A DNA stretch of 64,000 nt from Periplaneta americana (taxonomy: Eukaryota; Arthropoda; Insecta; Blattodea; Blattidae): contig NC_091119.1 of NCBI RefSeq assembly GCF_040183065.1, forward strand, positions 209,006,298 to 209,070,297, read 5' to 3'. The translations under genes were made by a program, and so were the position numbers. Under the pieces are notes generated by a model. It did not search any database, was not told the origin of the DNA, and worked only from the letters and a program-made list of their open reading frames with translations. The stretch's first letter is position 1, and every line of letters begins with the position of its first letter. Positions 11,235 through 46,442 of the stretch are shown here, one piece after another.

Positions 11235-11766
11235 GGCAAAACTACGACAACACGCTCTTCAAAAGATCACGTATTTACAGGGACTACGTATTAGGGGATA
11301 TTCTAATTTTGACTTATATGCAGTATCCGCGATCATTTTCTTACTGATTTACATCATTCATTGACAGTCGTACAGTACTACCCCATTATACAATACGTCA
11401 AAGTCATTTGAATCGGTCGTTGCAGAAAGGGGATAAGTCATAAAATCTTACTTTTGAGATAATCAATAAAAACTGTTTTCTTCTTCCAATACTGGAGTAA
11501 TCATTATAAATATTTTTTCTTACTTTGTTTATGAATAGTGAAGTATAATACATCATGTTAGACATCTGATATCTCAAACACTTTTGTTTAAAGTTGTTTA
11601 ATCGAACCATGACTTATCCCCTTTCTGCAAGGAATTGTTAAATATAAAAGAAAAAAATATATAAATTACAATTTTGGGCTAATGTAATATTTGGAAACTA
11701 GCTAAATGTTAATAATTACAACGATAACGATGTTTTGTGTATAATTACTACATTACTGTCACCATT

Positions 11767-11767
<1 letters not shown>

Positions 11768-11810
<43 letters not shown>
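11768..11810. repeat. (TA)n microsatellite
   Basis: About 21 uninterrupted TA units inside the transposon. Confidence 0.95.
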
Positions 11811-11812
<2 letters not shown>

Positions 11813-12023
11813 TTTCAATCATTATTCCTACTACAGAAATGTACCAATATGTAATTTTATATCACAGTTTTAAATCAGAACTCTACTTTTAAACTAAAAC
11901 TTAAAAACTGCATATAGGAGAACACAATAAAAATACACTAAAGTACTACACAAAATCATTTGTTTCAATTTTTACAGAGTGTATTGTTAGACGTTGGAAG
12001 CCACGTCGTCTGTAGATTCCTTG

Positions 12024-13036
12024 TCACAAGGTGGCCAGTTCTCTTCGTAAAAGGAAGTGTGTTCCAATGGAATGTATTGCCTCACTGTCGATACGTCTCC
12101 AAGTTTTTTTTTTTCGTATTAATGGGAATTTTCCCATTGTATGCTTTTGTGTAGGCATTACTATGCGTCCAGAACCTGGTTTTTTCATACAGAATCTGTG
12201 TTTCCTCATTTCACTACCAATGAACAAACTGGCAGTCACACATCCTGAATCATCTTTAGAGTAAACAAATTCACTGAATTGTGCTGAAGAAAACATATTC
12301 TTATCTTTCCCTTTCTTCCTCAGTCTGTCTAATGAGCAGGTGGTTTTCTTGTAATACTCTGGCCACCAGTATTTAAAATTCAAAATATCATCAGTAGTAA
12401 CTGATTCTACAGAAAATCTGTTGTTTGTGTTTGCCTGGTGGATCAAGGTATTGTATTGGTCTGGCACATACTGTATACCCTGTCTGTCTTCCTTGGTTTG
12501 CGCTTCACTACACCAAAGTTGCGGTCACAGGGAAGAAATGAATGGCCTCGTTGTGGAAAATAATGATTGATTTTGTTAAATCTCCCCATTTGGGTCAGTG
12601 CAAGCAACAGTCGGATTAAGATATGATTTTTATTTTGCCCTCCACAGTTATCAGAGAAAAGATACAATTCCTTGACTGAAGAAGAGACATTATTTTCAAT
12701 CTAGTTCAGAAGGAACACACTTCATTTGAAGATTTGTGGCCTATACCTTCATGATAGGAATAGAAGTGCGCCGTATGGTCTTTGAAATTGTGAATGTTGA
12801 AAATTATTGATGACCCAAAGTTGCGTCTAAACAAACAATGAGTAGTTTCTTACCCACATTGTTCTCCTGTCGTACGGGCTGCTACAGAATTCCCAATGGA
12901 ATTGACGTTCCAATGCCTTCAGTTTATTTTTCTTATTTACATTTCTGCGGTAGTTAATTTCACTGCGTTTACGTTTACCACTAATAACACAGTTTTCTTC
13001 CCCTGGGTCACTTACTACTTCTAGCTTATCTGTCAT
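12024..13036 (-). pseudogene. DUF7869-like transposase relic (lineage 1)
   Basis: The remains of a protein of the insect family that carries the DUF7869 domain (family name from memory). The N-terminal piece (13036 to ~12830) has a basic segment GKRKRSEINYRRNVNKK. A deletion follows, then the domain resumes at ~12765 with HEGIGHKSSNEVCSF. After a frameshift near 12705 it continues ENNVSSSVKELYLFSDNCGGQNKN, then FPQRGHSFLPCDRNFGVVKRK (12550-12480). A further frame change leads to PDQYNTLIHQANTNNRF and a C-terminal domain ending near 12024. The S-D-N-C-G-G-Q-N-K-N and G-H-S-x4-D signatures are the likely active-site region of an RNase H-type fold (inference). At least two frameshifts and one internal deletion make it inactive. 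It belongs to the TIR element that encloses it. Confidence 0.75.
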
Positions 13037-13310
13037 TTTCCTGATCAGCTGATGGGCCGTAACTTATTAGATCCACGGCACTCAGTTGCGTCACGTCGTC
13101 GGTCAGTGCAGAAAGAAGGTAAGTCGCTGACTTGTCCCCTTTCTGCAATGACTGCACTGCTTATGGTACTCTGCTTTGCGTTAAGAATGAGCAAATTTGT
13201 CCCATTTCTGTATGGAAATGTGTGTCTAGGTCTGGAGAAAGCAATGGCACTCTTAACTCATTTTCGCGTTTTTCATGACTTATCCCCTTTCTGCAATGAC
13301 CGATTCATTT

Positions 13311-15346
13311 ACAGTACCGGTTTGTAGGCCTACTTAGTTCAGTCGGGAGAACGTCGGAAATAACGAGAAGAGACTCTGGAGACTGAGAAGACAAAGATTC
13401 AAGCTTTGATGTTGTTCGCAAGATGTTCAAATACCAAAAACATGTTGCGGAGATTATAGTCTTTTAAAGAAAGCACGCAACTCTCAGCACAAAAGCTCTA
13501 TACATAAAATCAAAGAAAGTTTGTGATCTGACGTAGCTTTTAAAGTGCTCCTTCTTAGAAGCTGCTGCTTTCTGCAGGAGTCTCACAAGCTATAGTACAC
13601 CACCATCCAATAAGTTGAAGATGAATATGGTTTTCACTGACTTTTGTTTTCAATAAATAAACTGGTATTGTATTCAATGTTTATTTTTCGGATCTATGTT
13701 ATTATTGAGCGCTTGCTTACTTTTATGTTTGTGTATTTTCGAGAATAATAGAACTACAACATAATTTTAGTGATCTGTTTAGAAAAACAACCCAATACCA
13801 GGGACATACATAAATAGAAATTGAACATGTTTGGATACACATGAGTCTCAAACATTTAAAACTCTTATTCTGCAATCCAATACAGTCCTTTTGGTCTCTT
13901 GAAAAATTTACTCCACTGTACTTGGGAAGTTTCTCAATTCAGATACAGTTTATTAAAATGAGATATTTTAAACAGTTTCACGCATGAACAAAACAAAATT
14001 AAAATATGGGAGCTATGTAAGAAGGTTATTACAAACAGCTAACTGCACATTACATCGTATGTGAACTGAACATCGAACACGGGATCTAAAACAGAATATG
14101 TAACCAATTATCCTAATGATCCAGTTAATGGTTCGGAAAATATATTAAAATGAATTTTCGTTATGTGGGCTCAATTTTAGAAATAGACGGAGCTTCCAAA
14201 GTGAAAAGGAGAAGCGTACAAGAATAATGATAGAAAGGTAATTGATACTTAATTCTGTCTTTTGCAATAAACGATTTATATAATTCTGTATGAACTATGG
14301 AGACATGTGATCAGATTAAAGACAGCTGAAAGGGATTTGTGGGAAATGGCAGCTGCATAATAACGAGAAATACCAAGATTAACGGAAGTGGGCGGAACTA
14401 ATGCAGCGTACGGGTACCGAGTATCACCGGGATTGGAAAACGAGGCAACACAGAGGTCTTTTAAAATGGTGGGGTAGGTATGCGTGTCAACATACATGAT
14501 ATTGTCAATGTCCAAGGACCTACTCCAACATTAATCTTTTAAAATGGTGTGGTATGCTCTACGGGCTGCTACTGCAATATTTATATAGCTTTGATGCTTT
14601 AGGGCTAATTTATAACTCCAAATGTGAGACTTAGTATTATACTGAGTTTCATTCAAAGTTGTATTCCATGACAGCACTGAATTGGTCACTGATGTAGCCT
14701 TCTCGTAGCCTATTCCTGAATAAAAATTGTCCTGACTGGGATTTCGATAGTGCCGGTATCACAAGTGACTAGGTAGCTAATTCTAATTGTTACGTCAAGA
14801 ATTACGCTCTTCGGGTGAGAGTTGCGACAACTTTCCTTTTGTTACATCATTTTTAAATATCTGCTGGTAAAATGTAATAAAAATTAATATTCTGTCTCAT
14901 AGACATACATGGGCTAATTACCACCTTGAAGTAATTAACTGTAAATCAAATGAATAACGGAGAAAATGCAATATATGATATAATTATTTCTTTTTAATTC
15001 GATGTGGTACAAAGAGGGAAGCGTTTAGGTTGAACGGACAGGCAGTCTTGCACACAATTAATTAATCTGAGCCATTGTTGCACACGTGTTTCTGTAACAA
15101 TTTATAATTATAAATTACAATGCACAATTCCTTCAAGAAGTATTTTATACTATAATGCTGATTATAAAGGTGAAATGTTACAGGGTATTGCCTGCAATTT
15201 CGAAATTTTCACTGCAGCTGAAACTATTATGTTTTACGTACAATAGTGACAAAACTACTTTCTGAATACCAGAGTCATTGTACATCTGGCAACACTGGGA
15301 TCAACGTGCATAACTCACATCCCGTGTAGTGTACACCGCTGCATAC
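13311..15346. other. No gene recognised
   Basis: AT-rich DNA without convincing coding stretches or paired repeats. AATAAATAAA near 13656 could be a polyadenylation signal, but no gene ends there that I can see. Confidence 0.35.
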
Positions 15347-15349
15347 TTA

Positions 15350-16706
15350 GGCCCGGTTGCAGAAACGCAAATCAAATCAGTCCCTGATCGCCAATCAGTT
15401 GATGTCTGATTTATTTGATTGTTCATTGCGTTGCACAAACGTGAATCTCCAATCAACTTGTCTCAATTTACTAATTGCTGATTTAAGAAAGAAATACATT
15501 TGACAACAGCGCTATTTAGCAACCACAGCCAATTTGATGCTCTTTAAAAGTCGCGAAACGAATGCATCAAGTGGGCGGTGACTAGGAAAACAAGTGAATG
15601 TTTTGCTGTTTTGTTCCTTTTTGTAGAAAGGAAACAGGCGGTTTCTATTTGTATATAGACTACAATATAGTGAAAGAAAATGAAGAAAAAAAAAAAACGT
15701 GAGGGGGCTTCTGTTGTGGGATTTGCTAGGGGAATAGACAAGAAATTGGAATATGCATAGCCTCCATAACCCCAAATAATTCCATTTCCCATCTCTCTGT
15801 TTACAAATGGAGCTCGTAACCTACTCATTAAAAATAATGTGTTGTCATGTGTAGAACCCTGCCAACGGGCTACAACATTCCAGAATTTCAATGATGGTGT
15901 AGACTACATATTGCCTGTATATTCACAGAAAAGAAACCTTTTCTATTTCGATAAAGTTCGGCATCATTTCAACCAGGTGATTGGATGGGGATGTGAGCAG
16001 TCTATACAACCAATATTAGGCTACTCTTGGAAATCCTGACATGGCTGAAAATTCTCTCTGGATTTCAAATCGTTCCCTGTTTGAAGTTTGGGGATTTATG
16101 AGACCCTGCCATAACAAAGCAATTTCATACGTAACATTCCTAACTACTCGGCAAATAGTTGATTTGTGGACCCTAACAAGATAACCCAAGACCGCCTGAA
16201 AAATTCCAACAGCATAAAATCTCAGCATTATTAGAACTTTGTTCATAGGAGAAAGTGGAAGGTTTCGATTTATTTGTCTGCATATATTTGTTTCAATTTT
16301 TGAAAGTAACAAAACACAGGAATCCTTACTTAACCTAAATCTTTGCTCAAATTATCTGTCATTATACATAAAAACAATTAATGTCTATCACGGAAACGCC
16401 TTATTCTTAATAACATTTTTTTCATTTAAAATTTCTTCATCAGAAGAATCCATTATGTCGAAAACAATATTGTTACGCTATAACTATTTACTATATAATA
16501 CTGCATTATAAACAGAACAACATAAATAGCCTGCTTGATCGATGATCAGTGACTTAACCAGCAAAAATCTGTTGATCAAATCTGATGGAAGACTGATCTC
16601 CGATCAAACACTGATTGTTCTTTCTGCAACAGAAATAGAACTGATGGCCAATCAAACCCTCCTTGATTGCCAATCATATTTTGATCGGTGTTTCTGCAAC
16701 CGGGCC
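15350..16706 (-). mobile_element. PIF/Harbinger transposon, TTA target duplication
   Basis: The ends share GGCCCGGTTGCAGAAAC as terminal inverted repeats (15350-15366 and 16690-16706), and the similarity continues with repeated GATCGCCAATCAG/GATTGGCAATCAA-like subterminal words. Both ends are flanked by TTA (15347-15349 and 16707-16709), the 3-bp duplication typical of the superfamily. The element is 1357 bp and encodes a HARBI1-like transposase relic on the minus strand. No second (Myb/MADF) gene is visible. Confidence 0.92.
15690..16312 (-). pseudogene. HARBI1-like (PIF/Harbinger) transposase relic
   Basis: The minus-strand translation reads LPLSPMNKVLIMLRFYAVGIFQ and VHKSTICRVVRNV (N-terminal helix-turn-helix part), then GFPRV, IGCIDCSH (first catalytic Asp of the DDE domain), NDAELYRNRKGFFSVNIQAIC, and VVARWQGSTHDNTLF (second catalytic Asp), followed by GYGGYAYSNFL..PLANPTTEAP. 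The third acidic residue falls beyond the recognisable part. At least three frame changes near 16020, 15975 and 15900 inactivate it. In live Harbinger elements this enzyme cuts and rejoins the TIRs. Confidence 0.88.
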
Positions 16707-16709
16707 TTA

Positions 16710-17064
16710 CTATCAGATCGACAGCGAAACCGCCCGACTTGAAAAGACACACACAAGCAACAAGCACTCACTCCGTCGAAGCGAAATCTAACCTCACAAA
16801 ATATCAAAGTTGTATCAGCTTGTGTCATTCACATGGCACGCACGAAACGTGATGGCGCGGGAATGCCCACGCCCGGAGCAGATCGATCGATAGAGCCGAG
16901 CGTTCAGTCCGGGATTATGATTACGAGGATGGCTGTCGTGCATTTATCTGAGTGACTCCACTCTTCTCTTCTTGCCCGAATTATGCAATTCTACAAGATG
17001 ACACATACTTTCTCGGTTCCTTCGTCATGTTGCGAATTAAATGGCTTCTCAGTTTATTTTCTTG
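16710..17064. other. No gene recognised
   Basis: A moderately GC-rich stretch without clear coding or repeats, between the Harbinger element and the RTE insertion. Confidence 0.3.
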
Positions 17065-17078
17065 AACTACTACGTATT

Positions 17079-17827
17079 CAAAGCGATCGGTTTGGAAGTA
17101 AATCCCGAAAAGACAAAGTATATGATTATGTCTCGTGACCAGAATATTGTACGAAATGGAAATATAAAAATTGGAGATTTATCCTTCGAAGGGGTGGAAA
17201 AATTCAAATATCTTGGAGCAACAGTAACAAATATAAATGACACTCGGGAGGAAATTAAACACAGAATAAATATGGGAAATGCCTGTTATTATTCGGTTGA
17301 GAAGCTTTTATCATCTAGTCTGCTGTCAAAAAATCTGAAAGTTAGAATTTATAAAACAGTTATATTACCGGTTGTTCTGTATGGTTGTGAAACTTGGACT
17401 CTCATTTTTAGAGAGGAACAGATGCTAAGGGTGTTTGAGAATAAGGTGCTTAGGAAAATATTTGGGGCTAAGAGGGATGAAGTTACAGGAGAATGGAGAA
17501 AGTTATACAACACAGAACTGCACGCAATGTAAGTATTCTTCACCTGACATAATTAGGAACATTAAATCCAAATGCTTGAGATGGGCAGGGCATGTAGCAC
17601 GTATGGGGAAATCCAGAAATTCATATAGAGTGTTAGTTGGGAGGCCGGAGGGAAAAAGACCTTTGGGGAGGCCGAGACGTAGATGGGAGGATAATATTAA
17701 AATGGATTTGAGGGAGGTGGGATATGATGAGACTGGATTAATCCTGCACAGGATAGGGACCAATGGCGGGCTTATGTGAAGGCGGCAATGAACCTTCGGG
17801 TTCCTTAAAAGCCATTTGTAAGTAAGT
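17079..17827 (+). mobile_element. RTE LINE copy C, 5'-truncated, perfect 14-bp target duplication
   Basis: The sequence starts within the RT domain ([18 protein letters not shown]) just after the YADD motif and runs to MNLRVP and a GTAAGTAA tail. Perfect AACTACTACGTATT copies flank it at 17065-17078 and 17828-17841. The frame is open to 17532, then changes before the C-terminal arginine-rich part. It shares private variants with copy D (IFREEQMLRV, LYNTELHAM, GKSRNSYRV), so the two belong to one subfamily. Confidence 0.93.
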
Positions 17828-17959
17828 AACTACTACGTATTTAAAAAAAGCAATTAACTGAAATCGTGAAGCATCCTAGATACATAATTAAAGAGAACAT
17901 CACTTTCATTATATTCATTTTACTCTCTGCACTGACATTACTGTACATTTCACTGTCAT

Positions 17960-18085
17960 TTTTTTAGTCAAATGTCCGAAGATAGGTCTGGACCCATAAG
18001 TGACACCAACAAGGCATCACTCATGAGACAACTAGACCAGGAGATAATGGGGTAGGGTGGCCAGTTCCTTTCCCCCTTTCACAGA
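17960..18085 (+). repeat. Dispersed repeat family R, copy 1
   Basis: Contains TGTCCGAAGATAGGTCTGGA, GACACCAACAAGGCATCACT, CATGAGACAACTAGACCAGG and GGCCAGTTCCTTTCCCCC in order. The same words recur at 27735-27838 (inverted), 56750-56835 and 60455-60610 (inverted). This is probably the end of a mobile element. Confidence 0.8.
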
Positions 18086-18445
18086 CACAACACACTTCAC
18101 TGTCACTGTAATTCAATAATTACACCCTTGTTATCCTGCAGACTCTTACTTATTAACCTACATTTTCTAGCCTAAGACCCTCTTCCAAGCTATTTCAAAT
18201 AATGTAAATTTGAAATGAAGCTAAGTAAATACATGCCACCTTGATTAATGTACAATATAATATATCTTCTGTAACAAATATACAATTTGCATACACATTT
18301 TTAAGTTAATTTTTAATCTGAAGGATGGACTGCCCTCAAAGACAGCTGCAGGAAGGTTATTCTGATAGTCTGTACTTCGAATTAGAAAAGAAAATTTACC
18401 TACGTCCGTTGTTCTTTCCCTACATTTAATTTATTTCAAAATAAT
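18086..18445. other. No gene recognised
   Basis: AT-rich filler between a dispersed repeat and a LINE fragment; an intact coding stretch is not visible. Confidence 0.3.
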
Positions 18446-19590
18446 GGTCGTTCCTATTGCAATAAGTTGGCTTCTCTACCAGTCTTCTCAAAGGTTTTCG
18501 GAAAAGTTATATATAAGAGAGTACATCATCATCTTGATAGGTACAACATTCTCATTCCAGAACAATTTGGATTCAGAAAGAGTAAATCAACTGAGCAAGC
18601 GATGTTTAATTTAACTGATAAAATGCTGGAAGCAATTAATAAAAATTTACAAGTAGGAGGGATTTCTGTGATCTCTCCAAAGCTTTCGATTGTATTAATC
18701 ATAAAATTCCACTACAAAAATTAGAATACTACGGTATTAAAGGCATAGCATATCAGTGGTTTGAGTCATATCTCCAAAACAGAAAACAAAAAGCTGATAT
18801 CAACACATTCAGCAACTGCATTAAATCTACTTCAACATGAGGAAATGTTCATACAGCGATCCTGCAAGGATCTATATTAGGGCTTCTTCTTTTTCTAATT
18901 TTTATAAATGACCTTAGCCCCACAATGAAAGGAACAGGTATCCTAAACTATTTGCAGATGACACAAGTATTATAATTAATTACAGACAACAACTTTGCCA
19001 CATTCAAATATAAAACAGAAACAATTCTCCTTAAAATTTATGACTGGTTTACAACCAATAAATTAGTATTACACATTAATAAAACTAACATAATTCAATT
19101 TAAAACCACTTCAAATTTAATCTCTGAAACATTAGACACAACTATCAACAATATACCCCTAGTAGAAACATCAACAACCAAATTTCTTGGTTTGCATATT
19201 AATAATACATTAAATTTGAAAAATCATATTAAAGAAATAACCCCCAAACTTAGCTCAGCATGCTTCGAAATTAGGTCGTTACAACAATTTCTAAACAGCA
19301 GTATCTTAAAAACAATATATTTTGCCTATTTTCATTCCATTATGTCCTATGGAATAATATTTTGGGGAAGTTGCAGATTGTAAAAATATATTATTACAAA
19401 AAAGAGCAATCAGAATAATAGTTGGAGCAAAGGCTAGAGAATCGTGCAGATTATTTTAAAAAAAATTAGAGATTCTGACCTTAACAAATCAGTACCTACA
19501 TATACTCTTTAATAAATTTCCTCTCATGTAATAAAGAAAATTTTCAAACTAATTCAGCCTACATAGTAAAAATACCTGCAAAAAGAATGA
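18446..19590 (+). mobile_element. Jockey/CR1-like LINE fragment (reverse transcriptase)
   Basis: In three frames the translation gives [89 protein letters not shown] (catalytic FADD at ~18950), then FLGLHINNTLNLKNHIKE, SIMSYGIIFWG and RAIRIIVGAKARESC. These are ordered fingers-palm-thumb motifs of a non-LTR reverse transcriptase. The endonuclease part is missing and several frameshifts are present. It is distinct from the RTE copies. Confidence 0.88.
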
Positions 19591-19597
19591 TTTTCAT

Positions 19598-20345
19598 ATG
19601 CCATCATCAAATGTATCGTGCTATCAAAGGGGAGTACGTTACATGACGTTAATAGCTATATATTTTGGATCTGACGTGTTTTCAATTGATGGCCAAATTC
19701 TTCTATGCACAATATGTGAGCAGGCAGTGAACAATGAAAATAAATATTTCATATCTCAACACATTGCAATAAACACAAAAATGCACTTTCAAAGGCTACT
19801 AAGAAAAAGATTTCTCCACTACCTACGATAATTGCAATATCAAGTCGACAATCACAATTTGCATTCGACTTCTGTAAAGCTTTTGTGAATGCCGGAATCC
19901 CTTTATGGAAGCTCGAAAATCCTATATTAGAGCAGGTTTTGGAGAAGTATACCAACAAATCTGTACCTAGTGAGTCAACTTTGAGAAAAACTTACTTAAA
20001 TTAATGTTACGATTCCTTAATGAAAGTTATTCAAGACAAAATGAAAAATAAGATGATCTGGATGTCAATCGATGAGTCATCTGATCATAAAGATCGCTGT
20101 ATTGCCAATGTCATTGTTAGACCAATAGATCCTTCTACAGAAGACGTGAAACCATTTCTGCTTACAACAGAATGTCTGGAATGGATTAACAGTACAACTA
20201 TCTCACACTTTTTCACCAATTTATTGAAATTAATGTGGCTAGAAGAAATTAACGACATGTTACTGTTCGTTACTGACACCGCACCATATATGAAAAGGCT
20301 GGAAATACTTTAAAAATGTTAATTCCAAACATGCTTTATGTGACC
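19598..20345 (+). mobile_element. hAT-type transposase relic
   Basis: A zinc-finger-like start (IDGQILLCTICEQAV...YFISQHI, C-x2-C...H) at 19680-19760 is followed by SQFAFDFCKAFVNAGIPLWKLE, PSESTLRKTYL, then MIWMSIDESSDHKDRCIANVIV and MLLFVTDTAPYMKR (20275-20295). This order resembles the insect hAT proteins with a CGG-binding-type zinc finger. The ...ID-S and VTD segments would hold catalytic aspartates. Frame changes near 19830 and 20005 and an early end make it a relic. Confidence 0.65.
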
Positions 20346-20707
20346 TAAGGATTCCACAGATTGTCGACAAATTGGTTTCAAGTAAAAAAAACGCACACAT
20401 ACATCCATTCATTCATTCTTTACAACGGTAGGCCCAACTTCACAGCACAGTGCTTGGAAGTTCAACACCCACTTCCATGAGGGAGGTTGTTCTTCACGAG
20501 TGCCAAATCATAGTGGGGTTTTCACACGTTCTTCACAATATCCCAAAGAACTTTCAGAATATGATTTTCTAATTTCATTACGCTTCACGAACACTAATTA
20601 CTATGTTTGTCCATTTAGTTTTGCAACACTAAATTTCTTATCACTAATCATGGCATCAAACTCATGGCAGAGGTCTAAGATAACTATCACTACGCAACTG
20701 TACTCAC

Positions 20708-20759
20708 CGGATCTGACGTCTTCTCCCACTGGCAGCTCTTTCGCATCATTCACATCCAT
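20708..20759 (-). CDS. Candidate first coding exon (hypothetical)
   Basis: On the minus strand GAAGATGG gives a good start context and reads MDVNDAKELPVGEDVRS, then a strong donor (G|GTGAGTA) at 20708/20707. The upstream 5' leader (to about 20830) is moderately GC-rich. No partner exon was identified, and the piece could equally be part of a repeat. Confidence 0.2.
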
Positions 20760-20834
20760 CTTCCTCGGCACCTTCGCAAACAAAACAGAAAACTGAACAA
20801 TGCCAGGGCTCGTGAAATGTGGCGTCTGCACGAC

Positions 20835-21279
20835 ACAATGTGATCTCTATAATTAGGACAACTCATGTCATACTGTCATTTCACATGAACAATGCCTCCT
20901 TTGATTTTTGTCCTATAGTACAAAAATCATGTAATTTTATAAAATGATTGATCCCCTGCAAAAACTCAACAATGACAATAACTGTTAAGCGTGATTGAGG
21001 CTATGACTTCGTCTGAAAAAAAAAAAAAAAAAACTTCTCCAATCGAAGTCTTCCCGATCACTCGCAAACGCTACCGGCTTGTTCATCAGTAATTGGTTCT
21101 TTTCTCAATGCATCAAAAGATCTGATTCCACGGCTTCTTAATCACCTACTTACAGTCTTTGTAGAGAGGGTACTGAAGTCACAATGTTGCAGAGCTTCAA
21201 CAGCGTTTCGTCTTTTTTCTGAGGGGGAAGCGTTTAACCTCCAAAACCTCCTCTGGCTGTGCCAAAGCATGTCCTGATA
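20835..21279. other. No gene recognised
   Basis: Includes an A16 run at 21017-21032 that may mark an old retro-insertion; nothing coding is visible. Confidence 0.3.
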
Positions 21280-22160: not shown

Positions 22161-22235
22161 CTATAATGCATTCCAAGCCCATAACATTATTTTCGTGTAT
22201 GGTACGTATAATTCCATGTATTGTGAGTCCCTATC

Positions 22236-25365: not shown

Positions 25366-25369
25366 AGTA

Positions 25370-28982: not shown

Positions 28983-28984
28983 TC

Positions 28985-35522: not shown

Positions 35523-35589
35523 GAATGTTGTGAGAGGCATAAAATGATGTTGTTCGTACAGTAAGCAAAAGCTGAACTTCATATTATTG

Positions 35590-35928: not shown

Positions 35929-36296
35929 CTCGTGTAATTTTCGCACCCAATTTTCTTTTACTTTCATTTTAACTGGTCAGCGTGAGTCTGAGTTTTCTGA
36001 CCACGAGAGTGATTTACTGGCAGTCGTTCTAAAATGTATTTAGAAATACACAAAATTATGATGGAACCTAACACTGAAGTCTCCTTATTCGTTTCAGAAA
36101 CATCGCGATTTTTCTGCAGTTGCTTTGCGTTTTCACTCATTCTTAATCATACCAGTGTGGTGTGTATAGTTCTTTGAAATACAATGCTGTTTTTCATAAT
36201 GTCATGTAATTTTTTATTTTCTCGCGTAATTTACGCACCCCTACTTCGGATTCCCCCCCCCCCCCACCCAAAAAGTGCGAAAAATACGCGAGTAAA
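35929..36296. mobile_element. Foldback/MITE with CTCGYGTAATTTTCGCACCC ends
   Basis: CTCGTGTAATTTTCGCACCC at 35930 is matched in inverted form by GTGCGAAAAATACGCGAG at 36276-36293. A third copy (CTCGCGTAATTTACGCACCC, 36221) sits 55 bases before the right end and makes a local palindrome around a C14 run. Confidence 0.65.
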
Positions 36297-36736
36297 TACA
36301 GCACCACCACGCAGCAGTAGCTTTGAGTACTGTGCACATCTTCAACGTTTTACAAATGGATGTGCACAGGAAACTGTAGACTAAGGCTGGGGAACAAAAG
36401 TTGTTTTATGTGGCAAATTGTCACAAAGGGGATAAATTCCACTTGAGAATCTACTAAAGTACAATCTTAAAATATGTATATGTACTGGTACATGTGATAT
36501 GAGTTTTCTGTCTATGTAAAAATGTATTAGTAAGGCAGTTCTCACTGGCTTCATCCTTCAGAATTAGACAATCTGGCACATTTTGCAGTCACGTGTTTTA
36601 CAAGATTTCAATTACAGCAGAGATGGACTTATAAAGATCATATGAGAGAAAAAGCATTGAAATATATACAGGGTCACCATACGCTTACAAACTGCATACA
36701 TATCATCATTAATATAACTTATAAATGAGGCGTCAC

Positions 36737-37204
36737 AATAATTGAAACGAGGCATCCAATTCCAAAATGTGCCTTATCCATAATGAAGAGAATGATATAT
36801 TTAAATTATTTCCCAATAATTGAAACGAGGCATCCAATTCCAAAATTCGCCTTATCCATAATGAAGAGAATGATATATTTAAATTATTTCCCAATAATTG
36901 AAACGAGGCATCCAATTCCAAAATTCGCCTTATCCATAATGAAGAGAATGATATATTTAAATTATTTCCCAATAATTGAAACGAGGCATCCAATTCCAAA
37001 ATTCGCCTTATCCATAATGAAGAGAATGATATATTTAAATTATTTCCCAATAATTGAAACGAGGCATCCAATTCCAAAATTCGCCTTATCCATAATGAAG
37101 AGAATGATATATTTAAATTATTTCCCAATAATTGAAACGAGGCATCCAATTCCAAAATTTGCCTTATCCATAATGAAGGTTATGATATATTTCAATTATT
37201 TCAC
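36737..37204. repeat. 78-bp tandem array, six copies
   Basis: Units start with AATAATTGAAACGAGGCATC at 36737, 36815, 36893, 36971, 37049 and 37127. Four are essentially identical; the first differs slightly and the last is diverged. Because 78 is a multiple of three, long open frames run on both strands; these are by-products. An inverted copy of part of the unit (GGATAAGGCGGGTTTTGGAA) lies at 37256-37285, so the array may be the inside of a foldback element. Confidence 0.97.
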
Positions 37205-37439
37205 AACTACTTCAGAGGAAACGTTTTTTTCCTTCTCCTGAAAAATGTATAAAAGTGGATAAGGCGGGTTTTGGAATTGGATGGGGTTTCCAGCTGTGCG
37301 GGATCTTGGACTTGAACATCACACAATGGCAGATATGAGCAGCTAGCTTCTGCTTAGTTGCGAGTGTTTAAATCCACGAAAGACATTAGGCAATATTAGC
37401 TTGAGTGTTTGGTTCTGGCAGCATCAAAGACCATTCCTG

Positions 37440-37930
37440 AAGAGGTCAATTAGTCAAGATATTTAATTTGTGTGCTGAAGTTGCCAAATCCATCGAACAA
37501 TCAACTCATAAACTGATATACAAGCAAGCATCAGTACTTGGAGTACCACATTCAACAATACATTGTCACATGAAGTACTGCTTGGTGAAACCATTTCGTC
37601 AATTAACAAACGAAGGGAATCATGTATGTTTCTGCTTGAGCAGTTTCCTTTAAGGGCCTGTTAATGGAACAACCTATCTGAAAATGCTTTGGACTTGGTT
37701 AATATCCCAATTGACTGAAAATAAAGTTAGAGGTCAGGTATGATTTCAGCATGATGGTCAAATAGTCCATTTTGTGCTAAAGTTTGTAACTTTCTAAACG
37801 GCAATTTCCTAAGGAGGTGGAACTCCAACATCACCATCACCACACAGGATAACAGCCTATGGGAAAACATGCAAATTGCTACAAAACTAATAATGAACTA
37901 CGAGCCACCTTCATAAACATAACACCGCGA
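37440..37930 (+). mobile_element. Tc1/mariner-like transposase relic
   Basis: VAKSIEQSTHKLIYKQASVLGVPHSTIHCHM is a helix-turn-helix of the kind at the start of these transposases. Further on VNGTTYLKMLWTWLISQL, FQHDGQIVHFVLKFVNFLN (usually FQQDGA..H, holding a catalytic Asp) and FLRRW follow. The middle is missing and frames change. Confidence 0.6.
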
Positions 37931-38981
37931 AGTTAAGACGGGGTACAGTGACTTATGGAATTGTGTGATCATAATGGCATGGAATTACCAAATTACTAAA
38001 CTTGTTAGTTTATAAAGTAACACAGCACAACATAGTGAGACATGGCACACCGTGTTTGCATGAAGTCTACAGGTCATGTTGCTAACATTATTCTCCAAAG
38101 TATGTTTGTGCTGCCATTAATAGAAGAATGTTTTATTTTCAAGACTTTAATTCGTCTTCAAAATATATGCATTATAAGCATTTAGGAGATGATTAGATAA
38201 TATTTTGACACACATAAATTCCTAAATATAACCAACAGAACCATTCCATAAAGTCGAAGAGTGTGCAAGTGATCAGCAAAGGAATTTTAAAAAATTGCAA
38301 CTATAGGAGTCATGAGAATTTAAAATTTACTAAAGTACGAGTTCATAAATACGTAACTACAAATTTAAATGTTCGACCCTCAAAGTGCATTCTGAGAACA
38401 TATGAATGACGTACACAATGCACAGGATGCTGAGCTGGTGTCGATCTGTAGAAATCTGATAAATAATATTAGTTGCACCAAGTAAATATACATAACTAAA
38501 CCATTTGTTTCTATCATGTTGTTTCCAGTGATTAATTTCCTTTAACAGATACATGACCATTTATTATTAACAGTACACAGCACATTGAAAATACAAAAAA
38601 AGCTTTCCTAATACATGAGAAAGTGATAATTGAAAGTAATGAAGTTTTATTAAACAATGCTAATACTGTCATGGAATTTCAGAGTTGTTGCACCATGTCA
38701 GAGATGTAAAAATATCCAATGTTTTGGAACTCCATCATTAGGGAAGCAAGTCAAGAAGATACTATCTATTCAGCTATTCCAAGAGACACCCAGCCTGCTA
38801 GCTCTTTCTTGTACATCCATGATATGGCGCAAGGAACGACTTCACACCACATTGAACTCTGTGAAAGATACAAATAATGCTTCGTTCCTAAAGTGAAAGG
38901 TTTCTCATTATCTTTGATAATTTGACTGTTTCCAAGGGAGAGAAATGGATAATGTAACTGGAATATCGTTGTTGAAGAAAC
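37931..38981. other. No gene recognised
   Basis: AT-rich. An open frame at 38657-38896 (+) has no known motif. Confidence 0.35.
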
Positions 38982-39310
38982 AATACTGCGTAACTGACAT
39001 TTTGGCGATTTTCATATTTTTGTTGTGTTGGTATTTCTGGCATCACATGCACTATTTAAAATAAAGAACATGTTTGATTTGCCCATTTAAATCAATGAAA
39101 TAAGTGTTTAAAGCAATACTGCCTAATTCAAAACACACAAAGGCAGAAATTCCACCTAACTCACATTATACAACATTGTGTAACTACAATTATACAGTTC
39201 CTGCTGCAAATACTATGTAACTGATGAAAATTAGCTAAAATGAAACCATATTGTTCCTACTGGAAATATCATGTAGCTGATGAATTAATTTTCCATTACT
39301 GCCTAACAAC
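38982..39310. repeat. Cluster of AATACTGCGTAACTGA-like repeats
   Basis: Related words occur at 38982 (AATACTGCGTAACTGACA), 39115 (AATACTGCCTAATTCAAA), 39208 (AATACTATGTAACTGATGAA) and 39264 (AAATATCATGTAGCTGATGAA). The last two sit in ~40-base repeats 55 bases apart (GTTCCTGCTGCAAAT / GTTCCTACTGGAAAT). They may be subterminal repeats of the DUF7869-like element that follows, but the right end was not found. Confidence 0.55.
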
Positions 39311-39869
39311 TTTGTAAAGATATGTGATTTTTCATGTTAATAGCTTTGATATTAATCTGTGATATTTGCTTTTCTATACAATACGTAAGCAGCATGAATG
39401 AAGTTTTTTTTTTTTTAAATAATATGAACACTTTGGGGGGCAAAGGCTAATTGGAATTTCCCTGTCTTTGATCGGGTAAAAGACCCTGATATAACTGATA
39501 TTTAACTCTTGCGGTGAATCTCGGTGAAGTCCATAAGGCCTAATTAGTCAAATCCACTTTGGTTTCTTTTGTACGCATTGTAAAATTTTTCCTTTGTCAG
39601 AAGAGAGCCAATTGTAGATTCATAAGTTTATGGAATGAGACCTTACTGAAACAAAGGCATTGGATAGAGAGATCACTTGAAGAGGTCTTGGTTGCAAATA
39701 TGTTACCTGTTTTGCAATGTTATCGACTTTGTTTCCAGGTATACCATAATGACTAAGGTATCCATTGAAATGTTATTTACTTTTGGAGTTTTTTTAGTTT
39801 ACTTAGTTGTTTCTGAATTGGAATAATTCTATGTGTGTATAGGTTTGGTACATATTTGATTATATTAAA

Positions 39870-40175
39870 TATAGCCCCCTTGGAGTTGGTAAGTATGCAA
39901 ATAGATTTTTCAGAAATTTGAGTAACAAACTAAAGAGCAGCATCAATAGCTAGCAATTCAGTGTCAAGACTGGAGGAGGATGAACATGATATGAAGTAAC
40001 TTTCTTGATATTTTGGAATATAATACCCTGCTCCTGATGTCCCATTATTAGGATTTCGAGATCCATCTGCATAAATTTGAAGGTGATCCTTATTTGTGCT
40101 GCAAAGTAGTTCATTGGCATCTAACTTAAGAATGTATGGAGGATCATTTTTGGAATGATTTCATAAAAAAGATGT
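39870..40175 (-). mobile_element. LINE RNase H domain fragment
   Basis: The minus-strand translation reads DHLQIYADGSRNPNNGTSGAGYYI (Asp of Y-x-D-G-S near 40065), then LDTELLAIDAAL (Glu near 39960) and FICILTNSKGAI-like sequence: the ordered motifs of a retroelement RNase H domain. It is probably from a Jockey/R1/I-type LINE and is short. Confidence 0.75.
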
Positions 40176-40332
40176 GAAGAAGACAAACGTGAAAGTGTGA
40201 GTCGTGATACTTTTAATGAGGGTTTTCAGAAATGTAATCTCAGTGGACGAGTGTTGTAGTCATACTGCAAAATCACATTATGAAGAGAAAGACGACACAG
40301 TACAGTGTACACTATGGATCAAAGTGGTCTCA

Positions 40333-40735
40333 TGCAAGTACTACAAAACCAAATTATCGGTTCGTAATTTCACGATGTGCAGTATAATTTGGAAAGTAAG
40401 GATACAATTTGCATTTTAGTTTGAGTGAATTGGTTGCCTCAACTTTCGCATCATGTATTGTGGAAAGAAATGCAGGGAAGCTCTATCCCTGTAATTCTAT
40501 TTTCAGATGGTTGCAGCTACCAAAATAGAAATGTTGTCATGGCAAATGTTTTATGACTGGCAATCAATATGCGGTAGTGATAACCCAAAAGTATTTGGAA
40601 AAAGGACATACCCAGATGGAATGCGATTCGGTTCACAGCGCCATTGAATGCAAACTCAAAGACTGTGACATTATGCCTCCCAGTCAGTATGCTCTTATAT
40701 CAAAACACTCAATGCTTACGATGTCGAGTATTTAG
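40333..40735 (+). pseudogene. DUF7869-like transposase relic (lineage 3)
   Basis: CKYYKTKLSVRNFT (40333-40375), ELVASTFASCIVE (40425-40463), VILFSDGCSYQNRNVVMANVL (40492-40553), VVITQKYLEKGHTQMECDSVHSAIECKLK (40572-40660) and PPSQYALISK follow in order with frame changes near 40375, 40490 and 40553. The SDGC-x-x-QNRN and KGHTQMECDS motifs parallel SDNCGGQNKN/RGHSFLPCDR of lineage 1 and DSSFGQNKN/VGHSYLNYDR of lineage 2. The distance from the first Asp to the His is about 35 codons, versus 37 in the other two. TIRs were not found. Confidence 0.65.
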
Positions 40736-40739
40736 AATA

Positions 40740-43120
40740 AGCCTACTCTTTCTTCACTAACTATGCCTTAAAAGCATTTTCGGAGGTATGTAAATGATCC
40801 CACAGTGACTTGTAAGCTCTGCAATATCGTCTTGAAGGTTTGATTTACTATGAACTGTCTTTCAACGAAAAATAGCTTGACATGCCTTGCTGTCCAAGAA
40901 CGTAGTTTTTCCAAAGCTGTACAAAGAACGACTATTGAGATTTGGGATGAACAGTATTTTGTTTGAGTAAATAGGCACCAGAAGAAATAGCCTATTAAGT
41001 TTGGGAGTTTAGATCATTATAAGTAGATCTAATAATAATAATAACAGGATTTTTGTGAAGTGAAATTTATTGTTTCAGTAAATATGTAGGTCTTCATGAT
41101 AACTAAGTGTTGCCATGTTCAATGAATATTATTTTGTATTTCAGTAAATAGGTCTAACATTCATATAAAAGAGTTATATAAGCTTAAGAAATTAGGTAGT
41201 TAAATATGAAAAGATTTAATATGTCATTTTCTTCACAATTTTTAACTGGAAATACATTTTTAATTATCCAAAACATATCATTTGAAAATCCCGCTTAGAT
41301 ATCATCCTCTTAGCTGTTGTAATAACACCAGTTCAATATCGTGTAAGTATCAATTTTCCTCTGTCGATGGCACTGAAATACAGCGTAACAAACATAACTC
41401 ATCAAAGTGTGTGCAACTGATGTTTTATTATAAAACTAATTTTGAGGTTCTGTAAGCCAGCATGTGACTCCCAAACAGTTTTTTCCTTCTCCTGTAAAAT
41501 TCACACTTTGTTAGTTACACGGTATTGTTTCTTCAGTGAAGATATATACAATATCCAAGATTTCACGATCATTCTTCCATTCACAATTAGTTTAATAACC
41601 CATACACACAGATGTTCTACATGTAAAAGTTTCATTTCGAAGTGTAAGGCATTCACCACACTAATGTAATTACTTCACACACAAAACTTTACTCCAGTTG
41701 AATTTTAAAAAGACTGTAACTACATAGATAGATTTCTGTGATAGAGTTTTATGCTTTTGTCTTCTTAATGATTAGTTGCACTGGTGTCTCTGACATGGGG
41801 ATGGTTACGCAATGTCAACATCTTGCTACATTGTACTTATGATTTACTTTAAATGTCCATTTATTTCAATTAAACTAAATGCGTGTAAATGAAGTCAATA
41901 CGGCTACTCATAAAGTGCAGCAATGATGCCGCAGTTACACCACAGCTTAACAGATGATCTCTGCTGACTCTCATGACGTGACACATCATAACATGGTTCA
42001 CTCTCTTTTGTGTCATCATGCTGTTTCTTAAGATATCAGAGACAGTTGACACTACATTCAGTATCAAAATCTGCAATACTGGTAGTTTTCAATGATTTTA
42101 AACACTCAAACTTTCACGTATTTCGATGGGCTGACTTATCTGAAGTTAACTCAAAACAGCTTGTTTATGAGAACTGCATTTTTCGTGTGCACAAAATCAC
42201 TCCAGCATCTTTCTCAAATACGTTGTTGCAAAGGCAATTTCTATTTTCTCTGCAAGCAACTTATTTGGTTTAAATGACAATAGCAAAGGCAGTAAAAACA
42301 AGTAATTCCAGCTACATTTGATCCAATGTTTAAGAAACTTGAAAGTGAAGAATATGGCCTTTAAATGTCCGAACTGGTAAATTATGTGACAATTTTGTAA
42401 GCTGATTTGAAAACACATTCTTATGCGCATAATTCCACAGATTTAGAAACAGAGGGATTTTCAGAATCACCTATGGACACACTAAGTTGTGAATCTGTAG
42501 ATTCTATATTTTATTCTTCTTGTTTATAAACTCATCCATACTCACTTCTCAGCCTATAACTGATATCCAAATTTATTAACTAACCACATTCAACACAAAT
42601 TAAAATTAGATGACACTACGAAGATGGAAACAACTGAACAAACTTGCATGGAAATCGTTTTTGTAGTATTTGGCCGAACACTCATCAGTCGACTGAAGAT
42701 CCCATTGTTTGAAAATCGTAACCAGGCAGCTGTGATCAGTCACATAGTGGGGGGGGACAGAGCAGTTAGTACTAAACGCTACTTTGAATTTTGCTTAACA
42801 TTGGCTTCAATTTAAGTCATTCTTTTCTACAGTGTAAGATAAACAGAAACCATAAACTTAGGTTTCAAAATTTTCCATTCTTAAACTTCATTATTACTTG
42901 AATATTTTAGAACAAACAAATAGAATTGCTCATTCTGAACATTGTTTCGTTCATGCTCACAGAAAAAAATTTGCTTAATAAGAATGACAACTGCAGAAAA
43001 ATGCAAATGTCAAATATGCAACTATAATTACTTGAAAATAATTGGGGAGGGGGGAGAGCTCGTCCCCTTGCCAGAAATCCCTGTGCTTATGGACTAACGA
43101 AGAAATTTGATAAATTATTA
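40740..43120. other. Long stretch without a recognised gene
   Basis: AT-rich. Open frames at 41442-41669, 42010-42277 and 42624-42815 (+) show no known motif. G9 at 42750 and (ATA)n at 41031-41044 are present. Confidence 0.35.
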
Positions 43121-43189
43121 CTTTATATATGAAGGGACAAGTGGATGAAGATGTTATGTAACATTAAAAAAAAAAATAAATAAATTTAT

Positions 43190-43445
43190 TATTATTATTT
43201 AGTAGGTTATTTTACGACGCTTTATCAACAGCTTTGGTTATTTAGCATCTGAATGAGATGAAGGTGATAATGCCGGTGAAATGAGTCCGGGGTCCAACAC
43301 CGAAAGTTACCCAGCATTTGCTCATATTGGGTTGAGGGAAAACCCTGGAAAAACCTCAACCAGGTAACTTACCCTGACCGGGAATCGAACCCGGGCCACA
43401 TGGTTTCACGGCTAGACGTGCTAACTGTTACTACACAGGCATGGA
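43190..43445 (-). mobile_element. tRNA-derived SINE
   Basis: On the minus strand it begins with a tRNA-like head (box B GGTTCGATTCC near 43390, preceded by GCACGTCTAGCCGTGAAACC). It continues through CTCAACCCAATATGAGCAAA and ends TTGATAAAGCGTCGTAAAAT then (AATAAT)n. ATTTATTA at 43179-43187 and 43450-43457 fits a target duplication. It would be transcribed by RNA polymerase III when active and moved by a LINE partner. Confidence 0.88.
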
Positions 43446-43489
43446 CTAGATTTATTAATTTTATTAATGGATGAAGGTGTTATGTTATG

Positions 43490-44760
43490 ATGTACGAGGG
43501 ATATTTTTTTTTTCAAGGTCTGATTGGCCGCGAAATGAGCACAGTGAAAATCTGATGAAGCTTTGCGCAGATGTGTTGCCCAGTGTCTCTAGTATGCTCG
43601 TCGATCACGTCACATCGCACATCAGTTCTGAGCGCGTAGTGAGCATGTAAACATGCCTACAACAACAGAGTCTCCCGCCAAATGTGAAGTGCGAGTGTGT
43701 GCTATAATTCGATTTCTTTATGCGGAGGGGTGCAATGCAGCCGAAATTCATCGACGAATGAGTAATGTGTACGGTGACAGCAAAGTGCGGCAATGGTGCA
43801 GAAACTCCGAAGCAGGATGTGCAGACTTTCATGATGCAGATGGTCAGGGAAGGTTGCGAGTGTCAACCAATGATCTTGTTCAGAGAGAGGATCAGGTGAT
43901 TCGAGAAAATAGCCAGTTCACAACTTCTGTGTTGAGTGATTTCAAGGTCAGCTCTCTATACCATTGTGACTGAGAGACTTCATTACAGCAAACTGTGTGC
44001 GGGGTGAGTTCCCAGATGCCAGCGGATGGGCACTGCCTTAACGTTTCTCCAGACCTACCATGATGGACAAGATTTTTTGAATAAAATTGCCACAGGGGAT
44101 GAGACATGGGTCCATTTCGAAACTGAAGAAACAAAAGAGCAATCCAAATAGTGGATGCATTCTCATTCCCCGAGTAAACCAACAAAGTTCAAGCGAACCT
44201 TCTCCATCAGAAAGTGTATGGCTACTGTGTTCTGGGACCGAAAGGGAGTTCTCTTGGTGGAATTCATGGAACATGGCACGACCATCACTGCAGCCTCATA
44301 CAGCGCAACCCTTCAACGTCTACGAAGGGCAATTCAGAACAAGCGACGAGGAATGTTGTCATCAGCATTGTCCTTCTTCATGACAATCCTCGCTGCACAC
44401 TGCAGCTGCAACAAAGAGGCTCCTGCAGCAGTTTCGATGGGAAGTGTTTGATCACCCACCATACAGCCCGGACTTGGCACCCTCTGATTTTCATCTCTTT
44501 CCTCATATGAAACGGTGTCTAGGACGACAACATTTTGGCACAGTCAATGAACTGTAGACCAAGCTCGTCATACGAGAGAAGCCAGCCGCCTTTGATTTCA
44601 GCCAATTCTCTACGCTGGTCTGCAGCTCATTGTCTGTGCCAAAATGTTGTCCTCCTAGACACCGTTTGTTGTTATAATGAGTCCTGTGCAGAGACCAAAT
44701 ACACTGTAACATGTGATTGTAACACCATTCGTGTATGCAAAACAGCACTGTGCTCTATCA
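43490..44760 (+). mobile_element. mariner transposon, inactivated
   Basis: The left end TACGAGGGATATTTTTT resembles mariner TIRs. The transposase starts at ATG 43653 (MPTTTESPAKCEVRVCAIIRFLYAEG, N-terminal helix-turn-helix with GDSKVRQWCR). It then continues in changed frames: RLHYSKLCARWVPR, IATGDETWVHF (first catalytic Asp, ~44095), TFSIRKCMATVFWDRKGVLLVEFMEHGTTITAASYSATL, VLLHDNPRC (second Asp, ~44380), and PPYSPDLAPSDFHLFPHMKRCL (third acidic position, ~44470). At least four frameshifts and a stop break it. The right terminus is replaced by an inverted copy of the sequence near 44512-44565. Confidence 0.88.
44512..44672. repeat. Inverted duplication of the mariner 3' coding end
   Basis: AAACGGTGTCTAGGACGACA at 44510 and its inverted form TGTCCTCCTAGACACCGTTT at 44650 mark arms of about 50 bases (through ACATTTTGGCACAG and CAATGA.CTG.AGAC), separated by ~45 bases. 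Confidence 0.9.
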
Positions 44761-44789
44761 AAGTGGAGGAAAAAAATTGATGTGATACA

Positions 44790-45975
44790 AAGAAGTGTAA
44801 AGGATGGCCTATCTGCACCACTAGCAGGCCACAGAAAATATGTAGATGATACTAGAACACATGAGGAGTGTCCCAGCCGAATCATCACATTATTCATAAA
44901 ACAATAATCCACATAAACAATACTTGTCACCAGTACTCTCAATATCACTGATGCATTAACTTTACAGCAAATGATGTGAACCAGAGCAATTGTCTAACAA
45001 GCATACAGTAAAAAAAATGCACTTATGCAAATATTTTTGTCACCCAGTTCAATGTATCCTTTGCAACTCTTAAAAATGACACCTGCAGCACATGTGATGC
45101 AGAGGAAAGGCAAAATCAATTCACAGTGTTTGTAATATGACAGTTGATCTTCAACAAACCATGCCTCTTCCCAAGCTTACTACAGCCAAGGCACAACTGT
45201 AGTTCTACAACTCGGGAATTCATAGTATTGACAAGAATGTGGAAAAAGCTACATTCTGTACTTGGACAGAAGATGTGGCACATAGAGGAAGTGCTGAAGT
45301 TTGCAGCTCGTTGTTGCCTGTTCTTAAAGTGGATGAACAAATAAAAACTAAGGATCATTTGGTGATATGGATGGATTCATCTTTCGGACAAAATAAGAAT
45401 CTTCAAATATTAAGCCTTTATCAGTATCTGATATTGAAAAGCTACTATAACATCATTGATCACAAGTATTCTGAAGTGGGCCACTCTTATTTAAACTATG
45501 ATCGCGATTTTGGGAGAATTGAGAATGTTCTCAGAAAACATGACACTGTGTACCTTCCTCAGCAATACCGTAACATAATCAGTTGTACCAGTAGGAAAAA
45601 CAAAGTCGTTAATATGGCTCCACATTCACATTTTACAAACCTAATAGCAAACATGAAACTAGTAAATAGGAAGGAAGACATGCTGGGTGAAAAAGTTCAC
45701 TTCGGTGATGGTATTAAGTGGATTCGTGTCAACGAGTATGGATCTTTCTTGTATAAAGAATGTTATGACGAGAACATGTCCTTAAAAAAGTGAATTTACT
45801 AAGAAACAATAATCGAACAGCTACACCAGATGATGTTTTGATTCCTAGACTTACTCTCAAAACAGGTTATCTCTCTGAGGAAAAAGTTCAAAATCTGAAA
45901 CAACGAATAAAGTTTGTCAAAGAAGAATGTCGATGGTATTATGACCACATTTGTCAAGAATATGAAAAGGTGTGA
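44790..45975 (+). pseudogene. DUF7869-like transposase relic (lineage 2), most complete
   Basis: Segments in order: GHRKYVDDTRTHEECPSRII, KQYLSPVLSISLMH...CEPEQLSN (44915-45000), FNVSFATLKNDTCSTCDAEE (45049-45110, a C-x2-C pair), VDLQQTMPLPKL (45140), FYNSGIHSIDKNVEKATFCTWTEDVAHRGSAEVCSSLL (45205-45315), HLVIWMDSSFGQNKN (45357-45400), SEVGHSYLNYDRDFG (45470-45514), then PQQYRNII, NMAPHSHFTNL and WIRVNEYGSFLYKECYDENMSLKKV. A frame change near 45790 leads to LLRNNNRT...TLKTGYLSEEKVQNLKQRI, ending at 45975. The line-up with lineage 1 is clear (37 residues from Asp to His in both). At least one stop and two frameshifts are present. Confidence 0.75.
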
Positions 45976-46442
45976 AATTAATACTGTTACAAAGACAGAC
46001 ATGTTTGTAAACTGCATGTTTCAGAACTTGATGGCATAATGTAAATGTTATATTATTATTATTTTTTATTTTCTGTGCTTACTCCTTAACATTTGTTGAC
46101 ATATTGTATTATACTGTGGTGGTTATCCCTGCAATTACAAATTACAATGCAATAAATCCTGTTGTACTAAAAGATAAGTTTTATTGGCACCTTCATCCAG
46201 CATATATAAGTATATACTTACAGTTAATGTTTCATGGATGAAAGTGTTATGTGCAAGTTATTTGTGACAAATTCTACTAAAATGATTTTTGCTCAATGTT
46301 ACTCGTGCAGGAATTTAACTGGACTAAATCAAACCACTGTGATGAATTGTAAAAAAAATAACAGAAAAACTTTAAGTGCATTTTTCTCAAAACTTACTAT
46401 ATTTGTTACATGACACCTTCATCCACTTAGCCCTTCATATAT

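What the first reader, a model, noticed from the sequence alone, without database searches (positions are those of the whole stretch)
11410..46442. Three divergent DUF7869-like transposase relics share one core and define a poorly described DNA transposon lineage
Relics at 12024-13036 (-), 44790-45975 (+) and 40333-40735 (+) all carry D-x-[CS]-x-x-Q-N-[KR]-N followed by G-H-[ST]: SDNCGGQNKN/RGHSF, MDSSFGQNKN/VGHSY, SDGCSYQNRN/KGHTQ. The Asp-to-His distance is 37 residues in the first two and about 35 codons in the third. Upstream blocks (NEVCSF / AEVCSSLL / ASTFASCIV) also align. Two of the three lie inside TIR elements with 4-bp AT-rich flanking repeats. I know DUF7869 as a domain of many uncharacterised insect proteins. 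Linking it to elements with defined ends is the new part; the Sola superfamily (4-bp duplications) is one possible home.
Basis: partly seen in the sequence, partly recalled or inferred. Interest (0 to 1): 0.85.

Follow-up and report, generated by a model that had tools for sequence, protein, structure and literature searches.

The report
Three decayed Sola2-like DNA transposons
The three fragments are dead copies of cut-and-paste jumping genes, most likely of the known Sola2 type, and related bacterial elements show that the unnamed protein domain DUF7869 belongs to a transposase.

Summary
Two relics match Pfam DUF7869 (PF25273) above its cut-off, the third only weakly. A profile built without window sequence ranks the three as the best three places in the window; the reversed window gives nothing. 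Elements 1 and 2 have strong inverted terminal repeats and exact 4-bp flanking repeats ATTT and ATAT.

DUF7869 proteins also occur in bacteria, as single-gene insertion sequences with TIRs in 9 of 14 loci examined. One Thiomargarita copy interrupts a PqqD-type gene; three uninterrupted homologues align without a gap at the junction when one 4-bp copy is kept. So DUF7869 elements move and duplicate 4 bp.

Conserved aspartates (D-x(75-78)-D-x(41)-D) fit an RNase H order in an AlphaFold model; the third Asp lies in a low-confidence stretch. PMC3627910 describes AWWT 4-bp duplications for Sola2. Best reading: decayed Sola2-type transposons. No Sola2 protein was available for a direct comparison. 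New here: the link from DUF7869 to defined ends and a bacterial branch without an NCBIfam name; not a new superfamily on present evidence.

The parts
11410..13306 (-). Element 1, 1897 bp, deleted relic; TIR arms 37 nt 95% complementary (arms 11409-11445 and 13271-13307), 5'-GAATCGG ends
   Evidence: four copies of a 21-nt TIR motif in the window (<=3 mismatches), all inside this element, none expected by chance
11406..11409 (.). ATTT, left copy of the 4-bp duplication of element 1
13307..13310 (.). ATTT, right copy of the 4-bp duplication of element 1
12024..13036 (-). Coding relic of element 1 (several frames); DUF7869 core 12425-12685; Asp 2 at 12650-12652, Asp 3 at 12524-12526; the region that should hold Asp 1 seems lost (reading)
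43131..46436 (+). Element 2, 3306 bp with later insertions inside; TIR arms 39 nt 90% complementary (arms 43125-43163 and 46404-46442), 5'-GAAGGG ends
   Evidence: four copies of a 19-nt TIR motif, 0.04 expected
43127..43130 (.). ATAT, left copy of the duplication of element 2 (sits in ATATAT, so 2 or 6 bp would fit as well)
46437..46440 (.). ATAT, right copy of the duplication of element 2
45134..45793 (+). DUF7869 core of element 2; one stop inside (at 45200-45202); Asp 1 45146-45148, Asp 2 45374-45376, Asp 3 45500-45502
43632..43970 (+). Mariner-type transposase fragment inside element 2 (Mos1 HTH, E 2.1e-4, under the gathering score)
   Evidence: nested by position
38967..41541 (+). Element 3 (tentative ends), 2575 bp; arms 38963-39012 and 41496-41545, 74% complementary; flanking ATAT/ATAT
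40317..40740 (+). Coding relic of element 3; Asp 2 40506-40508, Asp 3 40625-40627; a candidate Asp 1 at 40317-40319 (motif recognised from recall)

Best explanation
The three relics are dead copies of three different families of one kind of DNA transposon whose transposase carries DUF7869. The likely mechanism: a DDD transposase with an RNase H-type core binds the inverted ends and, probably, the repeated subterminal motifs, cuts the element out, and joins it to an A-W-W-T target with a 4-bp stagger, which repair turns into a 4-bp duplication. By its duplication and its catalytic layout this is most likely the Sola2 subgroup. Shown: shared domain, TIRs and 4-bp repeats for elements 1 and 2, and a 4-bp duplication at a bacterial relative judged against uninterrupted homologues. 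Inferred: DDD catalysis, cut-and-paste rather than copying, binding to the subterminal motifs, membership in Sola2.
For: DUF7869 matches and an independent profile. TIRs of elements 1 and 2 above all 100 resamplings, subterminal motif copies, duplications ATTT, ATAT, ATAT. Full-length bacterial relatives with DUF7869 (6 of 6 scanned) and TIRs at 9 of 14 loci. Thiomargarita copy L010:1633-3676 flanked by ATTT/ATTT in a PqqD-domain gene; with one copy kept the frame runs on and three uninterrupted homologues align without a gap at the junction. AlphaFold model of the Desulfocicer protein (pLDDT 73.3): strand 360-368 holds Asp 366, strand 439-444 is followed by Asp 445, in the strand-helix order of RNase H; Foldseek's top three PDB hits are TnsB and Mos1. 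Asp 2 to Asp 3 is 42 residues in elements 1 and 2 and in the Desulfocicer protein. AWWT, with ATAT, AAAT and ATTT named, is given for Sola2 (PMC3627910).
Against: No Sola2 protein sequence could be compared. No Foldseek hit reaches E 0.001 (best 5e-3, TM-scores at most 0.16 on the query), and unrelated proteins such as acetyl-CoA carboxylase stand among the first hits. The third Asp lies in a stretch with pLDDT under 50 in both models; the element 2 model is poor (51.6). Of nine bacterial elements with ends only three have identical 4-bp flanks (L003, L010, L015); six differ in one or two of the inner bases. Element 3: family match under the cut-off and weak TIR; its end starts with C, not with G as in the others. 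Frame alone would also allow 1 or 7 bp at the Thiomargarita junction.
Confidence: 0.78

Rival explanations
1. DUF7869 elements are a superfamily of their own that shares the 4-bp AWWT duplication with Sola2 without being Sola2.
For: Pfam gives no named transposase family for the relics or for 6 bacterial relatives, only DUF7869; NCBIfam gives none above cut-off for 6 proteins; a 4-bp AT-rich duplication is not unique to one superfamily (recalled).
Against: Same duplication length and consensus as Sola2; DDD layout, which I recall as a mark of Sola (Bao et al. 2009, not held). I recall that the abstract of that paper lists bacteria among the hosts of Sola, as found here.
Confidence: 0.17
2. Same kind of element, but of the Sola1 or Sola3 subgroup.
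For: All three subgroups are one superfamily (PMC4455052 passages).
Against: AWWT is named for Sola2 in the one passage found; target preferences of Sola1 and Sola3 were not found in any text I could read.
Confidence: 0.04
3. The relics are pieces of host genes or pseudogenes and the inverted repeats are chance.
For: Element 3's TIR score was reached by 1 of 100 resamplings and 21 of 100 placements in the window.
Against: Elements 1 and 2: TIR above every resampling, exact 4-bp repeats at the TIR ends, TIR motif copies confined to the elements; bacterial relatives with TIRs and an interrupted gene.
Confidence: 0.01

Closest known systems
Sola2 subgroup of the Sola superfamily (DNA transposons; Repbase)
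   Same: 4-bp AWWT duplication (ATAT, AAAT, ATTT are named in PMC3627910), TIRs, three-aspartate transposase (DDD for Sola is recalled).
   Different: The Sola2 elements of that paper have 12-21-bp TIRs and an 888-aa transposase in one family; the window elements are short deleted relics with TIRs of 37-39 nt, the bacterial proteins have about 635-668 aa.
Pfam PF25273 (DUF7869)
   Same: Elements 1 and 2 pass the gathering score.
   Different: The Pfam entry carries no function; here the domain is tied to TIR elements and to a 4-bp duplication.
DDE/D transposases with RNase H fold (Mos1, TnsB)
   Same: Order of strands and helices, position of two Asp, top Foldseek hits.
   Different: No significant Foldseek E-value; no sequence match in the PDB for the element 2 protein.

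Membership tests
Pfam DUF7869 (PF25273) | Score above the gathering cut-off (26 bits) | tested here: met
   Element 1 40.2 and element 2 49 bits; element 3 17.3 bits, not met
Sola superfamily / Sola2 | 4-bp target site duplication | tested here: met
   Exact for elements 1 and 2, tentative for element 3; shown at a bacterial relative against uninterrupted homologues
Sola2 | Duplication of the form AWWT | tested here: met
   ATTT, ATAT, ATAT in the window; consensus taken from PMC3627910 passages
Sola superfamily | Terminal inverted repeats | tested here: met
   Elements 1 and 2 clearly, element 3 weakly
Sola superfamily | DDD transposase with RNase H fold (recalled as defining) | tested here: inconclusive
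   Three conserved Asp; fold order fits, but Asp 3 lies in a low-confidence stretch and no Foldseek hit is significant
Sola2 | Transposase similar in sequence to known Sola2 transposases | not testable with these tools
Known bacterial IS family | Match to a named transposase model | tested here: not met
   NCBIfam: no match above cut-off for 5 bacterial proteins and the element 2 protein; ISfinder itself was not searched

The most novel reading that the evidence does not exclude
DUF7869 marks a transposon superfamily of its own that spans bacteria and animals: the bacterial insertion sequences (one per genome, TIRs, AWWT sites) are a family without a name and the animal elements descend from or share ancestry with them, apart from Sola2.
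Probability: 0.17. Interest if true: 0.6.

Novelty: new member of a known kind. Interest (0 to 1): 0.4.

Why it matters
If right, a Pfam domain of unknown function gets a function (core of a transposase), and proteins that carry it in annotated genomes can be screened as transposon products instead of host genes. The bacterial copies are compact, with open reading frames of up to 668 aa, and would let the reaction be tested directly. One search of 5.39 million open papers found none that names DUF7869.

Tried and rejected
Relatives in viral contigs: two protein scans gave nothing; the motif scan gave one stretch with a 66-aa frame that does not look related. Plasmids with the Desulfocicer protein and phages with one Thiomargarita protein: no match at E 1e-3. 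Solved structures by sequence: none for the element 2 protein. Of 23 genome loci from the motif scan, 11 encode relatives (confirmed as 11 of 11 genomes); the other 12 I set aside by reading their translations, without a family search. Searching more genomes found little: 7 of 389 (class of the Desulfocicer genome), 7 of 340 (its order, the same seven), 2 of 369 (class of a Thiomargarita genome, one of them a weak match to an unrelated-looking protein), 1 of 288 (phylum of the Verrucomicrobia genome, the seed itself), 2 of 42 (order of Thiomargarita, both seeds); beyond the seeds only two genomes (G065, G162) are new. More copies in the same genomes by a TIR pattern: none beyond the known ends.

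Idea considered and not adopted: that the unequal inner bases of the bacterial flanks reflect a mechanism that carries donor bases along. For one of the six unequal cases (L014) a related genome shows that the two flanks do not come from one site; in L024 the left reading frame stops right after the junction, which is weak evidence of the same; L007 is undecided (its joined frame stays open); L005, L018 and L044 were not tested. The ends of L005 and L044 were placed by eye at the G that follows AxxT. That A and T stand at the outer places of all 18 bacterial flanks could partly reflect that choice and is also compatible with a longer TIR.
Full report
Observation. Pfam names the domain DUF7869 for element 1 (E 3.5e-10, frames joined by me) and element 2 (E 7e-13, its own frame); element 3 gives 0.0037 with one joining of frames and nothing with another. 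To avoid my own joins I built an HMM from 13 proteins found outside the window and scanned all six frames: the three relics are the best three places (E 2.5e-14, 5.7e-12, 0.087), the next is at 4.9, and the reversed window reaches only 15. Element 3 is thus a likely but weak member.

Ends. Element 1 runs from 11410 to 13306 with ATTT on both sides, element 2 from 43131 to 46436 with ATAT on both sides. ATAT lies in a longer AT run, so element 2 alone would also allow 2 or 6 bp; ATTT of element 1 is not its own reverse complement and is a true direct repeat. TIR scores of 32 and 29 stand against at most 15.5 and 16.5 in 100 Markov resamplings each; in random placements of the same geometry in the window 2 and 6 of 100 reached them, some of which must enclose the same arms. 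I find arms 38963-39012 and 41496-41545, 74% complementary, with ATAT at the edges, but 1 of 100 resamplings and 21 of 100 placements score as high. A 21-nt TIR motif occurs four times in element 1 and nowhere else in the window, a 19-nt motif four times in element 2 and nowhere else; such subterminal copies are likely transposase binding sites (inference). For element 3 the corresponding motif occurs only in its two arms.

Relatives. The window's genome is not held. A DNA pattern for D-x-C-x-G-Q-N-K-N found 23 places in the bacterial and archaeal genome collection; 11 encode relatives, seven of them with open frames of 577 to 668 aa and no stop (L003, L005, L007, L014, L015, L018, L022, L024 are eight loci at 577 aa or more; L004, L010 and L016 are shorter, 251-429 aa). 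The best placed are Desulfocicer vacuolatum DSM 3385, an isolate, on a contig of 147,846 bases, and Desulfobacterales bacterium HSG2 on one of 48,122; others are short contigs of metagenome bins, and L004 (a sponge symbiont bin) may be host DNA. All 6 proteins scanned match DUF7869 above the cut-off, and NCBIfam names none of 5. They are rare: 7 of 389 genomes in the class of Desulfocicer, five of them seeds of the pattern search.

Bacterial ends. Strong inverted repeats bracket the gene at 9 of 14 loci examined (L003, L005, L007, L010, L014, L015, L018, L024, L044; not at L004, L016, L022, L036, L045). The four bases outside are L003 AAAT/AAAT, L010 ATTT/ATTT, L015 AATT/AATT, and, unequal, L005 ATAT/AAAT, L007 AAAT/ATTT, L014 ATAT/ATGT, L018 ATAT/ATTT, L024 ATAT/ATTT, L044 ATAT/AGAT. 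So three of nine are exact.

The empty site. The Thiomargarita nelsonii element L010:1633-3676 (2044 bp, a perfect 36-nt inverted repeat counting the last flank base) interrupts a gene whose downstream part is a PqqD domain (E 1.6e-11). Its own transposase frame is short (310 aa), so this copy may be inactive. Keeping one ATTT copy restores an open frame across the junction; 1 or 7 bp would do so as well. The uninterrupted homologues decide: G003 (80% identical), G1079 (75%) and G1080 (67%) align with no gap at the junction when one 4-bp copy is kept; the G1079 sequence has a 21-base gap further upstream. This is direct evidence that a DUF7869 element inserted and duplicated 4 bp.

Catalysis. 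The alignment of 12 proteins has Asp 445 and Asp 487 (Desulfocicer numbering) invariant and Asp 366 nearly so. Asp 2 to Asp 3 is 42 residues in Desulfocicer and in elements 1 and 2; element 2 also keeps an Asp 1, 76 residues before Asp 2, against 79 in Desulfocicer. The automatic alignments A2 and A3 put another Asp of element 2 in that place; I take the upstream Asp because it stands in a D-L-Q-Q context like D-F-A-Q-Q (reading). The AlphaFold model (pLDDT 73.3, pTM 0.55, 12 sequences) shows strand, strand, strand, helix, strand, helix, strand with Asp 366 on the first strand and Asp 445 behind the fourth; residues 485-499, which hold Asp 487, are below 50 in large part. In the poor model of the element 2 frame (51.6) the third Asp starts a helix, again in a low-confidence stretch. 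Foldseek's first three PDB hits are TnsB and Mos1, but with E of 5e-3 and worse, TM-scores of at most 0.16 on the query among those listed, and with unrelated hits among them.

What it is. The Mobile DNA paper PMC3627910 (passages) gives Sola2 elements AT-rich 4-bp duplications AWWT, naming ATAT, AAAT and ATTT. The three window elements have ATTT, ATAT and ATAT. Repbase keeps Sola1-3 as subgroups of one superfamily (PMC4455052 passages). Sola2 elements are curated from bivalves (PMC10294476 passages), and Sola2-type MITEs are listed for insects (PMC5199201 passages). That Sola encodes a DDD transposase and occurs in bacteria is recalled from the abstract of Bao et al. 2009, which is not held. 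A direct sequence comparison was not possible, so Sola2 is the most likely home, not a proven one.

Verdict. The finding is real. The transposon kind is known; what is new is the tie between DUF7869 and defined ends, the probable third element, and bacterial insertion sequences of this family with an empty-site proof of the 4-bp duplication. Papers found by other searches were seen only in the listings unless named above.

Noticed in passing
43632-43970 and on to about 44660, plus strand: Mariner-type transposase remains inside element 2 (Mos1 HTH, E 2.1e-4, under cut-off), so element 2 is older than that insertion.
   Followed up: partly
51689-52279, plus strand: Second mariner-type fragment, Pfam Transposase_1 E 5.1e-15.
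   Followed up: no
820-1449, plus strand: Reverse transcriptase fragment, RVT_1 E 9.6e-8; similar frames at 17041-17532 by eye.
   Followed up: no
16019-16351, minus strand: Weak match to HTH_Tnp_4 (E 0.0073, under cut-off), perhaps a Harbinger-type relic.
   Followed up: no
8627-9593 and 36736-37206: Tandem arrays of 83-bp (about 10.6 copies) and 78-bp units (6 copies, 97% matches).
   Followed up: no
46672-46715 and 46959-47002: Two copies of a tRNA-like stretch beside element 2, probably SINE parts; the SINE reading is recalled, not tested.
   Followed up: no
3894-4619, plus strand: GC-rich open frame of 242 aa with no Pfam match.
   Followed up: no
L014:1-75 and 3598-3672: The two ends of this Thiomargarita contig are a perfect inverted repeat of 75 nt, perhaps an assembly artefact.
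   Followed up: no
L007, L014, L018, L024, L005, L044: Unequal inner bases of the 4-bp flanks in six of nine bacterial elements; explained by rearranged flanks in L014, open for most others.
   Followed up: partly
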